Source of the DNA: Streptomyces sp. Tue 6430
GTDB lineage: Bacteria; Actinomycetota; Actinomycetes; Streptomycetales; Streptomycetaceae
NCBI GenBank assembly: GCA_021568835.1
Contig: JAKGSH010000010.1
Span: forward strand, 4,216,001-4,280,000
DNA length: 64,000 nt
Reading direction: 5' to 3'
Position numbers and translations under genes: made by a program
The notes under the pieces: model-generated
What the model was told of the DNA's origin: nothing
What the model saw: only the letters and a program-made list of their open reading frames with translations
Databases searched by the model: none
In this document: positions 21,248 through 28,713 of the stretch, piece by piece
How the letters are laid out: every line of letters begins with the position of its first letter
Numbering within the stretch: the first letter of the stretch is position 1

Positions 21248-21416
21248 CGGTCCAACCTAGGTCTGTTCATATGCCGAATCGGGCGCGGGACACGCCGGAG
21301 GGACGACCTTGGCCAAGCGTTCGACAGGTCCGCCGGGGCGGGCGCGGGCACGCCGTAAACTGGTGGATCGGCCAGCCCCCTGGCCCCCTGGCCCTCTCAC
21401 TACGGGAAGTCGCAAC

Positions 21417-22505
<1,089 letters not shown>

Positions 22506-24615: not shown

Positions 24616-26796
24616 GTGGGGCGTGGCGAGCGGGACACGGTCGCGAGGGGAGCGCGACTGTACGAGGCGGCGCAGGCAGTGGTCGGTGACCACGGAAGGG
24701 CGGTGGAGGCGGTCCGGGCGGCACTGAAACCGCTCCACGACGCGGCGGTGAAGCGGGAGCTCGATGCTGTTCCCGTCGCCCGGCTGCAGGACGTCACCGA
24801 AGGGCGGCTGCGGCTGGGGAGCGTCGAGAAGAGCGGACTGCGCACCCTGGGCAGTGTGCTCGAAGCGGGCCCCTACCGGCTGCGTCAGATTCCCGGTGTC
24901 GGGCAGCGCACCGTCGACCAGATGCTCGCCGCCGCCCGCAGGCTCTCCGAGGCCGTGCACGAGACCGTGGCCGTCCACATCGACGTGGACCGGCCGGAAC
25001 CGCGCACCACCGCGCTCGTCATGGCCCTGCATGTCCTGGTGGAGGCCGGCCCGGACACCCGGCGTGCGGTCGACAAGGCCACCGCCCTGGCGGAGCGCCT
25101 CGGTCCGTTGCTGGCCGACGCGAGGCCCGCCGCCGGAAGGGTCCGGATGCTTCTGGCCGGCCGGGAGAAGAAGGCCCGCGCAGGGGCGGCGGTCGCCGAG
25201 ACCCGGTCGCTGGTGGACGAGGCGGAGCGTGCCGGCCTGCCCGAGCTGCTCGCCCAGGCGTCGGTGGACCTGCTCCGGGGGCTCTCGTCCGACGTCGCGG
25301 CCTGGGTGGACTTCGAACTCCGCTCCGCCGAGTACTACAGCCTGCTCGCCGAGATCTCCGGGCGGCTGCCGGACACGGCTGCCGCAGAGGGCTTTCTGCC
25401 CGACGAGATCGCGGAGCGGGTACGCACCCAGCACCTCGACGACACGCACCGGCGGGTCTCCCTGCGCGGTTACCAGGCGTTCGGCGCACGGTTCGCGCTC
25501 GCGCAGCGCAAGGTGATGCTCGGCGACGAGATGGGCCTCGGGAAGACGATCCAGGCGATCGCCGTCCTCGCCCACCTGGCCGCCGAGGGACAGAGTCACT
25601 TCATGGTCGTCTGCCCGGCGAGCGTCCTCGTGAACTGGACACGGGAGATCGAGGCCCGCAGTGCCCTGCGCGTCATGGTGCTCCACGGTCCCGACCGGCA
25701 CTACGCGTTCGCCGACTGGAAGGGGCGGGGCGGCGTCGGGGTGACCACGTTCGACGCGCTGCGCGGCTTTCCCGCACCGGGCGGCGGGGAGGTCGGGCTG
25801 CTGGTGGTCGACGAGGCGCACTCCGTGAAGAACCCGAAGGCCAAGCGGTCCCAAGCGGTCGGCCTATGGGCGGAGCGTTGCGAGCGCGCCCTTTTCATGA
25901 CCGGAACCCCGATGGAGAACAGGGTCGTGGAGTTCCGCAACCTGGTCCGGATGCTCGACGGCGACGTCGCGGACTCCCTCGGTGAACGGGACGCGTTGGC
26001 CGGATCGGTCGCCTTCCGCAAGGCCGTGGCCCCGGTCTACCTGCGGCGCAACCAGGAGGACGTGCTGACGGAACTCCCGAGCCTTCAGCAGACCGACGAG
26101 TGGGAGGAGCTGAGCGCTTCGGACGAGGAGGCGTACCGCGAAGCCGTGCGCGCGGGCAACTTCATGGCCATGCGCAGGGCCGCTTACCTGCGCCCCGAGA
26201 AGTCGGCCAAGCTGGACCGGCTCCGGGAGATCGTTCAGGAGGCCGGCGAGAACGGGCAGAAGACGGTGGTCTTCTCCAACTTCAAGGACGTACTGGGCGT
26301 GGTGAAGGAGACCCTCGCGGCCGGAACCGCCGGAGACACCCCGGTGTTCGGTCCACTGACCGGCGCCGTCCCGGCCCAGCGTCGACAGGAGATCGTCGAC
26401 GACTTCGCCGGTGTCCAGGGCCCGGCGGTGCTCCTGGGGCAGATCCAGGCAGCGGGCGTCGGCCTCAACATGCAGGCCGCCTCCGTCGTCGTCATCTGCG
26501 AACCCCAGATCAAGCCGACCATCGAACATCAGGCGGTGGCCCGGGCCCACCGTATGGGCCAGGTCAGGCCGGTTCGCGTGCACCGTCTCCTCGCCACCGG
26601 AGGCGTGGACGAACGCATGGTGAAGATGCTGGAGACCAAGACGCGCCTGTTCGACGCCTATGCCCGCCGCAGCGCCGTGGCCGAAGCCACCCCGGACGCG
26701 GTCGACGTGTCGGACACCGAGCTGGCACGTCGGATCATCGAGGAGGAACAGGCACGTCTGGGTATGACGGACGAGAGGCCCAGGTCATCCGAGTGA
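24616..26796 (+). CDS. SNF2-family DEAD/DEAH helicase-translocase with N-terminal HhH domain
   Basis: A 726-residue enzyme from a GTG start. A helix-hairpin-helix DNA-binding motif lies at about 88-110 (LRQIPGVGQRTVDQMLAAA). A helical region of unknown type fills 110-280. The SNF2 ATPase core follows: Walker A GDEMGLGKTIQ at about 303-315, Walker B VVDEAHSVKNPKAKR at about 397, and motif III FMTGTPMENR. The C-terminal lobe has KTVVFSNFKDV and motif VI QAVARAHRMGQVRPVRVHRL. No nuclease or methyltransferase domain is visible. It is divergent from the repeat-rich membrane protein and convergent with the Fic gene, so it appears to be a single transcription unit. Relatives act in DNA repair or in phage defence; context does not decide. 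Confidence 0.85.
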   Translation: MGRGERDTVARGARLYEAAQAVVGDHGRAVEAVRAALKPLHDAAVKRELDAVPVARLQDVTEGRLRLGSVEKSGLRTLGSVLEAGPYRLRQIPGVGQRTVDQMLAAARRLSEAVHETVAVHIDVDRPEPRTTALVMALHVLVEAGPDTRRAVDKATALAERLGPLLADARPAAGRVRMLLAGREKKARAGAAVAETRSLVDEAERAGLPELLAQASVDLLRGLSSDVAAWVDFELRSAEYYSLLAEISGRLPDTAAAEGFLPDEIAERVRTQHLDDTHRRVSLRGYQAFGARFALAQRKVMLGDEMGLGKTIQAIAVLAHLAAEGQSHFMVVCPASVLVNWTREIEARSALRVMVLHGPDRHYAFADWKGRGGVGVTTFDALRGFPAPGGGEVGLLVVDEAHSVKNPKAKRSQAVGLWAERCERALFMTGTPMENRVVEFRNLVRMLDGDVADSLGERDALAGSVAFRKAVAPVYLRRNQEDVLTELPSLQQTDEWEELSASDEEAYREAVRAGNFMAMRRAAYLRPEKSAKLDRLREIVQEAGENGQKTVVFSNFKDVLGVVKETLAAGTAGDTPVFGPLTGAVPAQRRQEIVDDFAGVQGPAVLLGQIQAAGVGLNMQAASVVVICEPQIKPTIEHQAVARAHRMGQVRPVRVHRLLATGGVDERMVKMLETKTRLFDAYARRSAVAEATPDAVDVSDTELARRIIEEEQARLGMTDERPRSSE

Positions 26797-27118: not shown

Positions 27119-28261
27119 TCAGCGTTCCCGCCGGTACGGGTCCACGTACGGCTCCATCGACTGGCGGACTTCTTCGCGGACCGGGTCCATGAGTGGCCCC
27201 GGGGCGTAGTAGCGGGCGCGGGCCTTCCCGTGGGGGACGAGCCAGCCGCGGGCGACGAGTTCCCGGATGTCACGGATGGCTTGCTGGTCGCTGAGGTCGG
27301 CGTCCTGCTGGTAGACGGTGCGGCGGACCTTCGCGTCAGAGAACGCGGGTAGCAGGGCGTAGACGACCCGCTCGTCCAAGCCGGTTGCCTCGACGCCTTC
27401 GACCAGGCGGGTCCAGGCCCGCGACATGACATCGAAGCGGCGCTGGGCCTGCTGGGCCTGCCGGTGGTGCGCGGTCAGGCAGAACCGGATCCAGGGCCGG
27501 GTGTCCCGCTCGGGGCTCCAGTGCGGGCCGCCCACGTCCTCCAGGACCTGGTAGTAGGCGTAAGTGTTCTGCCCTCGTCCAAGCCACTCCTCGATGGAGG
27601 AGAACTCGGGTGGCATCAGGGCCTCGCGGGAGAACACGAGAGTGGACAGGGCGCGGGACATGCGTCCGTTGCCGTCCTTCCAGGGGTGGATCTTGACGAG
27701 GTTGAGGTGGGCCATGGAGGCACGGATGTGGACGGGGGCGTCGAGGTCGCCCTCGTTGAGCCAGTCGATGAACTCCGACATCAGAGCGGGAACGTCCGCC
27801 TGGTCCGGTGCGGTGTAGGCGGGGACCAGGGGGTCGTCGGGGCTGGTGACGTAGACGGGGCCGTCGCGCCAGCGGCCAGGGCGCTTGTCGAGGTGGTGGC
27901 CCTGCAGCATGAAGTGCAGGCTGTTGAGGAGGCCGGCGTCGTACCGGAAGTCGTCACCGGCGTCGGCGAGGGCCTGGATGTAGGTCATACCGCGCTGGTA
28001 GCCCTCCAGCTCGACACGCGTCTTCTCCCCGGTCTCCAGCGGTTCCTCGCCGGACATGAGGGCTTCCACGTCATCGACTGTTGCGGCGTATCCCTCGATG
28101 GTGTTCGATCCGGCGATCGCGCGAGCGGTGAGGTTGCGGCGCAGCTGGCGGGTCCAGCGAGGGGTGGCTCGGAGCATGTGGCGCAGGGAGCGACGCATGC
28201 TCTCGATCTCGTCGAGGGCACGCTGGTCGTCGGCGCCCAGAGAGGGAGTGGCGTACAGCAT
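27119..28261 (-). CDS. Fic-family AMP-transferase with N-terminal inhibitory helix and C-terminal winged helix
   Basis: About 380 residues from ATG 28261 (MLYATPSLGADD). The catalytic Fic loop HPWKDGNGRMSR lies at about 192-203, with the His and Gly-rich anion site needed to transfer AMP from ATP to a protein hydroxyl. An inhibitory motif of the (S/T)xxxE(G/N) type, SNTIEG, lies at 52-57, before the Fic core. That makes it a class II Fic whose Glu blocks ATP binding until released. The flap region reads GPVYVTSPDDPLVPAYTAP. The C-terminal 90 residues (QQAIRDIRELVARGWLVPHGKARARYY) form a winged helix that could bind DNA. A perfect 14-bp palindrome abuts the start codon, suggesting autoregulation. 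No antitoxin gene is adjacent. The target protein is unknown. Confidence 0.88.
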   Translation of the reverse strand: MLYATPSLGADDQRALDEIESMRRSLRHMLRATPRWTRQLRRNLTARAIAGSNTIEGYAATVDDVEALMSGEEPLETGEKTRVELEGYQRGMTYIQALADAGDDFRYDAGLLNSLHFMLQGHHLDKRPGRWRDGPVYVTSPDDPLVPAYTAPDQADVPALMSEFIDWLNEGDLDAPVHIRASMAHLNLVKIHPWKDGNGRMSRALSTLVFSREALMPPEFSSIEEWLGRGQNTYAYYQVLEDVGGPHWSPERDTRPWIRFCLTAHHRQAQQAQRRFDVMSRAWTRLVEGVEATGLDERVVYALLPAFSDAKVRRTVYQQDADLSDQQAIRDIRELVARGWLVPHGKARARYYAPGPLMDPVREEVRQSMEPYVDPYRRER

Positions 28262-28295
28262 GACTTCATGACACAATAATGGTGTCATGAAGTCA
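28261..28295. promoter_or_regulatory. Perfect 14-bp inverted repeat at the fic start (probable operator)
   Basis: TGACTTCATGACAC (28261-28274) is mirrored exactly by GTGTCATGAAGTCA (28282-28295), with a 7-base A/T-rich spacer. It begins at the first base of the fic start codon and runs upstream over the leader or promoter. It is AT-rich in a very GC-rich genome and has the size and symmetry of a dimeric repressor site. The winged helix of the Fic protein itself is the natural candidate ligand. Confidence 0.75.
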
Positions 28296-28713
28296 AGCGT
28301 GTACGCCTGGATCATCTCCTCCTCCTGCCGGCTCTCGTGTGGTCGTCAGGCTTTCGCGGCGAGCGGTGCGACCTCCCGCTCGTCCGGTCCGGTTGCGGAA
28401 CGGGGGCGGTGGTGTCGAAGCCGAGGGGGAGGTCTCCAGCGCGGTTGGTTTGCCCAGGATGCGCAGCACCGTGTCGCGAAGTGTCTTCCACGGTCGGGCC
28501 CGCACTCCCGTTCGGAAGGCGGTCCGGTACTCACCCACCGCGCGCCGGCGCCTCCCTCGGCGCGGAGCCGCCCGCTTCTCCCCGGCCGGGTGGACGTGGC
28601 GGCGCAGGTGCCGGGATACGGCCTGGTCTTGGTCGGAAACGGTCCCTCGGGAGAGCCGCCCCGTTCTCCGAGGGAACGGGGCCTTCCGTTCAGTTCCTGA
28701 CGGGCGGACCCGA
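28296..28713. other. 418-bp gap upstream of fic; one hairpin, no gene
   Basis: Open frames here on both strands have Arg/Pro/Ser-rich products and no family features. They are taken as composition artefacts. An 8-bp stem (28659-28666 with 28674-28681) lies about 35 bases past the stop of the 28714 gene on the minus strand and may end it. The fic promoter should lie close to 28296-28340. Confidence 0.5.

What the first reader, a model, noticed from the sequence alone, without database searches (positions are those of the whole stretch)
27119..28295. Class II Fic enzyme with winged helix and a perfect palindrome at its start codon
The protein combines an N-terminal inhibitory SNTIEG motif, the HPWKDGNGRMSR loop and a C-terminal winged helix. 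A perfect 14-bp inverted repeat with 7-bp spacer begins exactly at the start codon. This suggests a single-gene, self-inhibited and self-repressed AMPylation switch, possibly defensive, without a separate antitoxin.
Basis: partly seen in the sequence, partly recalled or inferred. Interest (0 to 1): 0.55.

Follow-up and report, generated by a model that had tools for sequence, protein, structure and literature searches.

The report
Self-repressing Fic AMPylation gene in Streptomyces
A one-gene bacterial enzyme module in Streptomyces carries, right over its own promoter, a mirror-symmetric DNA site that its relatives preserve, which suggests that the enzyme switches off its own gene; the principle has been shown before for a distant relative.

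Summary
Window 27119-28261 (-) encodes a 380-aa class II Fic protein (SNTIEG, HPWKDGNGRMSR) with a C-terminal winged helix. A perfect 14-7-14 inverted repeat at 28261-28295 ends on the A of its ATG. In 72 distinct Streptomyces homologues (48-100% identity) a dyad centred at exactly -17 is the strongest of 301 axes (clade average 8.1 SD), is kept by paired changes (0 of 500 within-clade shuffles reach it), and is again first in 26 held-out homologues. It overlies a leaderless-type promoter. In 27 carrier genomes the exact core pattern is present in 18, once each and at fic. Two genomes with a D-type and an E-type fic have different upstream sequences at each. No neighbour gene is common to most clades. 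Best reading: a Fic dimer represses its own promoter through the winged helix, as shown experimentally for CccR of Yersinia pseudotuberculosis. Binding is inferred here; a residue-level coevolution test was negative. Defence is plausible (PADLOC SoFic match, mobile-element context) but untested. New variant of a known kind.

The parts
27119..28261 (-). Fic gene, 380 aa, class II, Fic domain plus C-terminal winged helix
   Evidence: Pfam PF02661 E 2.2e-13; PADLOC SoFic E 3.3e-40 over residues 11-361; profile of A2 matches CccR 7xux at positions 39-358, SoFic 3eqx 147-355, CbFic2 8cil 143-347
28261..28295 (.). inverted repeat 14-7-14, proposed operator, dyad centre at -17 from the A of the ATG
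   Evidence: none in 100 shuffles; axis -17 conserved in 72 homologues and first in 26 held-out homologues
28269..28287 (.). inner operator core TGACNNNATNATNNNGTCA
   Evidence: only exact match in the 8.18-Mb own genome
28291..28296 (-). -35-like hexamer TTGACT, start of the conserved block in clade A
   Evidence: conservation in clade A begins at -35; 17 nt before the -10-like hexamer; promoter activity inferred. The promoter scan reported no site: it asks for A at position 2 of the second hexamer
28268..28273 (-). -10-like hexamer TGTCAT, 6 nt before the ATG (leaderless-type)
   Evidence: T at -12 in 70 of 72 and T at -7 in 70 of 72; Shine-Dalgarno-like motif in 1 of 72; held-out set 21 and 22 of 26; transcription start not measured
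28091..28108 (-). inhibitory motif SNTIEG (residues 52-57)
   Evidence: S52, I55, E56, G57 invariant in the 22 rows of A2
27653..27688 (-). catalytic loop HPWKDGNGRMSR (residues 192-203)
   Evidence: H192, P193, W194, D196, G197, N198, G199, R200, R203 invariant
27197..27379 (-). C-terminal winged helix (residues 295-355)
   Evidence: model m66ca1fca8a40: helices 297-307, 314-321, 325-337, strands 341-344 and 351-354; block means of pLDDT 81-92 except 67 for 341-350; Foldseek hits CbFic2, CccR, SoFic, further down MarR and TubR winged helices at E above 0.05

Best explanation
A single-gene, self-repressing class II Fic module. The Fic protein (by homology a dimer) binds, through its C-terminal winged helix, a symmetric operator that spans its own core promoter from the -35-like hexamer to the start codon, and so keeps its expression low. 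The SNTIEG glutamate is a second brake, on catalysis. Shown here: gene, motifs, winged helix by homology and model, a conserved and covarying dyad, absence of further exact sites in carrier genomes, conservation limited to the operator and the gene. Inferred: binding by the Fic protein itself, repression, leaderless start, dimerisation, AMPylation. Trigger and target are unknown.
For: Dyad axis -17 is first of 301 axes in clades A, Ap, C1, C2 and E (tied with -21 in E), second in D and third in B, where -25 leads; clade average 0.619 paired against 0.264 (8.1 SD). With 3' letters dealt anew within each clade, share paired 0.602 +- 0.006 against 0.629 observed, and covariation 0.077 +- 0.004 against 0.097, 0 of 500 shuffles reaching either; 7 of 17 pairs have different majority Watson-Crick pairs in different clades (for example -23/-11 C-G in A, T-A in C, D and E), against a mean of 0.39 and a maximum of 3 at 138 other axes. 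Held-out set of 26: -17 first (5.1 SD), -25 second (3.6 SD). Exact core TGACNNNATNATNNNGTCA: 18 of 27 carrier genomes have one site each, at fic, and no other; 2 of 20 genomes without fic have one. Clade C pattern: 12 of 22 carriers, once each at fic; 0 of 20 without fic. Own genome: one exact site, one fic. G079 and G323 each hold a D-type and an E-type fic with different upstream sequences. No neighbour common to most clades. Conservation ends at the stop codon in all seven clades. Precedent: CccR represses itself through palindromes near -35 and -10 (PMC9755527, passages seen).
Against: No binding or expression data. A residue-by-base association test did not single out the recognition helix (circular-shift fraction 0.38) or the winged helix (0.29) over the rest of the protein (effective number of sequences 21). 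Taken singly the dyads are weaker: 35 of 72 lie in the top 5% of windows of their own locus, 40 of 72 in the top 5% of shuffles, and six (L043, L044, L051, L074, L085, L086) score 4 or less, below the mean of other windows (4.6). A count of recurrent pair types is not raised at -17 (37, against a mean of 38 elsewhere). Clades B and D use a second axis at -25. Of 18 relatives under 50% identity outside the set of 72, 4 have a dyad in the top 5% and 7 have a Shine-Dalgarno-like motif, so the arrangement is not general to all relatives.
Confidence: 0.78

Rival explanations
1. The dyad is an operator, but for another regulator of the host, not for the Fic protein.
For: Binding by Fic not shown; residue-level coevolution test negative; 2 of 20 genomes without fic have an exact core site.
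Against: In 27 and 22 carrier genomes no exact site other than the one at fic was found; G079 and G323 have different upstream sequences at their two fic genes; the operator type follows the gene across species, and the D type into other families (f3, f5); no neighbour gene common to most clades.
Confidence: 0.12
2. The repeat acts at RNA level (hairpin in a leader) or is part of the coding sequence from an upstream start (28315).
For: An upstream in-frame ATG exists at 28315; a palindrome can fold as RNA.
Against: 30 of 72 homologues have an in-frame stop in -36..-1; the -10-like hexamer sits 6 nt before the ATG and 71 of 72 lack a Shine-Dalgarno-like motif; annotated starts agree.
Confidence: 0.04
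3. The repeat is a recombination or mobility site of a small mobile unit rather than an operator.
For: DNA homology to the window often starts at -35 (8 of 19 clade A rows in the best segment start at exactly -35, others between -36 and -95); clade A genes are often beside an integrase-like gene and a tRNA-Arg repeat.
Against: Attachment-like repeats where seen are the tRNA-Arg 3' end, away from the dyad; the dyad overlies promoter hexamers and covaries; conservation starts at the promoter in clades that differ in flanks.
Confidence: 0.04

Closest known systems
CccR (Yersinia pseudotuberculosis, PMC9755527, PDB 7XUX)
   Same: Class II Fic with N-terminal inhibitory motif and C-terminal HTH; autorepression through inverted repeats near -35 and -10 shown there (passages); profile match here over positions 39-358.
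   Different: CccR's site is two 10-bp repeats 26 bp apart (46 nt); here a compact dyad (35 bp, or a 19-bp core) reaching the start codon of a leaderless-type gene. CccR is a T6SS effector that AMPylates FtsZ; here the gene is solitary and its target unknown; 19% identity in the structural match.
CbFic2 (Coxiella burnetii, PMC10628234, PDB 8CIL)
   Same: Class II Fic with wHTH; best Foldseek match of the model; DNA binding changes its activity according to that paper.
   Different: Its DNA binding was tested with random sequences; no promoter site is reported in the passages seen.
SoFic / Sofic (Shewanella, E. coli; PMC12249575)
   Same: Fic plus C-terminal domain; PADLOC SoFic model matches residues 11-361; single-protein anti-phage system in that paper's account (passages).
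   Different: NCBIfam SoFic equivalog far below its cut-off (33.8 of 550 bits); E. coli Sofic has a 47-aa antitoxin gene downstream; no promoter operator described in the passages seen.

Membership tests
Class II Fic AMP transferases | (S/T)xxxE(G/N) inhibitory motif N-terminal to the Fic motif | tested here: met
   SNTIEG residues 52-57; S52, E56, G57 invariant in 22 rows
Class II Fic AMP transferases | HPFx(D/E)GNGRxxR catalytic motif | tested here: met
   HPWKDGNGRMSR, with W for F (W194 invariant in A2); H192, N198, R203 invariant; Pfam Fic 51.3 bits, cut-off 24. Consensus motif recalled
Class II Fic AMP transferases | AMPylation activity | not testable with these tools
   no assay
Autorepressing Fic-HTH proteins (CccR-like) | C-terminal HTH domain | tested here: met
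Autorepressing Fic-HTH proteins (CccR-like) | inverted repeat over the own promoter, conserved in relatives | tested here: met
   six of 72 without a clear dyad
Autorepressing Fic-HTH proteins (CccR-like) | direct binding and repression | not testable with these tools
   needs EMSA, footprint, reporter
Autorepressing Fic-HTH proteins (CccR-like) | secretion as T6SS effector | not tested
   no secretion genes were looked for
SoFic anti-phage system | matches PADLOC SoFic model | tested here: met
   E 3.3e-40, residues 11-361
SoFic anti-phage system | NCBIfam SoFic equivalog cut-off | tested here: not met
   33.8 bits against 550
SoFic anti-phage system | phage protection | not testable with these tools
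   no assay

The most novel reading that the evidence does not exclude
The operator DNA itself acts as the antitoxin: bound as a dimer to its own promoter the Fic enzyme is both repressor and catalytically held (or deAMPylating, as DNA binding makes CbFic2 according to PMC10628234), and loss of the DNA-bound state, for instance during phage takeover or on entry of the mobile element into a cell without the protein, releases expression and AMPylation together. That would be a one-gene toxin-antitoxin system whose antidote is its promoter.
Probability: 0.1. Interest if true: 0.75.

Novelty: new variant of a known kind. Interest (0 to 1): 0.46.

Why it matters
Class II proteins are most of the Fic family (80% according to the CccR paper, passage) and little is known of how they are kept silent. 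This family gives a natural series of operators (types A to E) paired with enzymes of about 380 residues in Streptomyces, so it can be tested directly whether self-repression is the general brake of Fic-winged-helix proteins and whether operator DNA also controls catalysis. It also gives a simple genomic criterion, a dyad centred at -17 of a leaderless-type start, for finding such modules.

Tried and rejected
Residue-level coevolution between the recognition helix and the operator: tested in 98 sequences, negative. Two suggestive coincidences remain as anecdotes only: clade E and L046 have the most changed recognition helices and differing upstream sequences.

First structure model, from 19 close relatives (A1), was useless (mean pLDDT 42.4); the second, from 10 more diverse ones (A3), is moderate (62.5), with the winged helix as one of its better parts, so whole-protein TM-scores (about 0.4-0.6 for the top hits) carry little weight.

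The promoter scan found nothing, since its rule does not allow G at the second position of the -10 hexamer; the promoter claim rests on conservation and geometry.

The covariation score was not corrected for the higher share of pairs at -17, and a second measure there (recurrent pair types) was not raised; one search was therefore run with shuffles inside clades, and supports the dyad at -17. At -25 the same control is weaker (13 and 46 of 500 shuffles reach the observed values), at -21 it is 4 and 1 of 500; at -40, -60 and -80 there is no signal.

Conserved neighbour or small antitoxin gene: ORFs of at least 40 aa in flanks of about 1.5-3 kb were clustered; families in 5 or more loci were confined to clade A or to C1, except one GTPase-like gene with its antisense frame in 3 D and 2 A loci.

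tRNA or attachment repeat at the window copy: none found.

Papers: searches listed no paper on Fic operators in Streptomyces; only the held open library was searched and long lists were cut. Of PMC9755527, PMC10628234 and PMC12249575 I saw passages, not whole texts; other papers only as search listings.

Full report
What is there. The frame 27119-28261 on the minus strand encodes 380 residues. Pfam gives Fic (PF02661, 51.3 bits, cut-off 24). A profile of A2 aligns to CccR (7xux, positions 39-358), SoFic (3eqx, 147-355) and CbFic2 (8cil, 143-347) among solved structures, so the C-terminal winged helix is supported by homology; the model shows helix-helix-helix-strand-strand at 297-354, and Foldseek ranks CbFic2, CccR and SoFic first, with MarR and TubR winged helices later at weak E-values.

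The palindrome. TGACTTCATGACAC-AATAATG-GTGTCATGAAGTCA at 28261-28295 is exact; 100 shuffles of the window gave none. On the coding strand it runs from -34 to 0, where 0 is the A of the ATG, with its centre at -17. A TTGACT hexamer at -35..-30 and a TGTCAT hexamer at -12..-7, 17 nt apart, with 6 nt to the ATG, fit a leaderless promoter; promoter and start point are inferred.

Homologues. The search for related loci gave 31 loci, 30 titled Streptomyces and one 'Actinobacteria bacterium'. Of 392 genus genomes 54 have a match at E 1e-20 or better, some only fragments, which were not fetched. After orienting, dropping three partial loci (L029-L031), leaving out four own-genome loci (L032, L033, L063, L064) and removing identical upstreams, 72 distinct rows remained. 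A tree splits them into groups A (20, with the window), Ap (3), B (11), C1 (7), C2 (15), D (11) and E (5); the names are mine, and the split of C1 from C2 has weaker support.

The dyad is conserved as a dyad. Over 301 possible axes -17.0 is best in A, Ap, C1, C2 and E (tied with -21 in E); in B and D the best is -25, with -17 third and second. Averaged over clades -17 stands 8.1 SD above the mean. At -17, 62.9% of cells pair; with 3' letters dealt anew inside each clade the share is 60.2 +- 0.6% and covariation 0.077 +- 0.004 against 0.097 observed, 0 of 500 shuffles reaching either; 7 of 17 pairs have different majority Watson-Crick pairs in different clades, against a mean of 0.39 and a maximum of 3 at 138 other axes. 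An earlier uncorrected score agreed (0.097 against a maximum of 0.064 elsewhere), but a count of pair types was not raised. One by one the dyads are weaker: 54 of 72 have their best axis at -17, -21 or -25, ties counted, 35 of 72 lie in the top 5% of windows of their own locus, and six (L043, L044, L051, L074, L085, L086) score 4 or less. In 26 held-out distinct homologues, some from other genera and families, -17 is again first (5.1 SD) and -25 second (3.6 SD). Examples: A TGACACAATTATCRTGTCA; B TGACAGGATSATCCTGTCA, TGACTGAATCATTCAGTCA, TGACTAGATAATCTAGTCA; C2 AATGATA-N9-TATCATT; D TGACGYAATGWTTRCGTCA; E around CGACCCTACG and GTCGTAG.

It is dedicated to fic. The exact core TGACNNNATNATNNNGTCA occurs once in the 8.18-Mb own genome; with one mismatch two more sites appear. 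Of 27 carriers of A, Ap, B or D genes 18 have exactly one site, at fic, and none has another; of 20 genomes without fic 2 have one. For clade C a pattern was found in 12 of 22 carriers, once each at fic, and in 0 of 20 others. These patterns were drawn from the same sites, so presence at fic is by construction; the informative result is the absence elsewhere. G079 and G323 each carry a D and an E gene with different upstream sequences, which argues against one host regulator reading both; the E-type upstream in G323 (L086) is one of those without a clear dyad.

It is a one-gene cassette. Pairwise identity rises at about -35 in A, Ap, B, C1 and D and at about -30 in C2 and E, and falls to background after the stop codon in all seven groups. 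No neighbour family is common to most clades; one GTPase-like gene occurs near fic in 3 D and 2 A loci. 30 of 72 have an in-frame stop in -36..-1, 70 of 72 have T at -12 and 70 of 72 at -7, 1 of 72 has a Shine-Dalgarno-like motif.

Mobility. In 11 of 20 clade A loci a convergent ORF family follows fic; one member was scanned and matches Phage_integrase just under the curated cut-off (26.0 of 27.1 bits, E 8.8e-6). A tRNA-Arg 3'-end repeat (up to 9 substitutions) was found in 17 of 149 loci, some of them the same contig twice. In L009 fic is the only evident gene between two identical 46-nt repeats 1915 bp apart. Homologues lie on 13 plasmid records and one Mycobacterium prophage record. No such repeat or tRNA was found in the window.

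Mechanism. Best reading: the Fic dimer, through its winged helix, blocks its own promoter, as CccR does (footprint, EMSA and reporter in PMC9755527, passages). The SNTIEG glutamate is the catalytic brake. CbFic2's activity changes on DNA binding (PMC10628234, passages), which suggests, without evidence here, that the operator could also gate activity. A test whether recognition-helix residues track operator bases more than other residues was negative, so that Fic itself reads the site rests on dedication, paralogue difference, homology and precedent.

Defence. PADLOC calls the protein SoFic (E 3.3e-40); NCBIfam's SoFic equivalog does not. Patchy occurrence (54 of 392) and mobile context fit defence or addiction; nothing here tests it.

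Verdict. Real, conserved, and well explained as a compact, leaderless-type, self-repressing class II Fic module: a new variant of a known kind.

Noticed in passing
L009 2258-4218 (same contig as L037): Fic is the only evident gene between two identical 46-nt copies of a tRNA-Arg(TCT) 3' end, 1915 bp apart: a minimal attachment-flanked unit without an integrase. L008 has a 2.6-kb arrangement with 93% identical repeats.
   Followed up: partly
L001 4162-5553 (-), and similar ORFs in 11 of 20 clade A loci: Tyrosine-integrase-like gene convergent to fic, in several loci with a tRNA-Arg 3' repeat further downstream: fic as cargo of a small integrative element.
   Followed up: partly
window 21309-22505, and L071 upstream of fic: A GTPase gene that looks like YchF (name recalled) lies about 4.6 kb beyond the fic stop in the window; a homologue lies beside fic in 5 other loci (3 D, 2 A). 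Possibly a preferred insertion neighbourhood.
   Followed up: no
window 24616-26796: SNF2-type helicase that matches PADLOC DrmD over nearly its full length (E 1.4e-162) and DpdE; partner genes of such systems were not looked for.
   Followed up: no
L145 4001-5179: A Fic relative (44% identity) in a Mycobacterium abscessus prophage record, in a region with annotated polymorphic toxin, metallopeptidase and lysis genes.
   Followed up: no
L146 2020-5146 and L149 3001-6092: On Streptomyces plasmids fic lies near an AbiEii-type nucleotidyl transferase gene (pSGZL) and a zeta toxin family gene (pPZG101).
   Followed up: no
L119, L141, L142 upstream of the gene: More distant relatives have other dyads with an AATCATT- or AATCTTT-like centre, within -48 to -14.
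   Followed up: no
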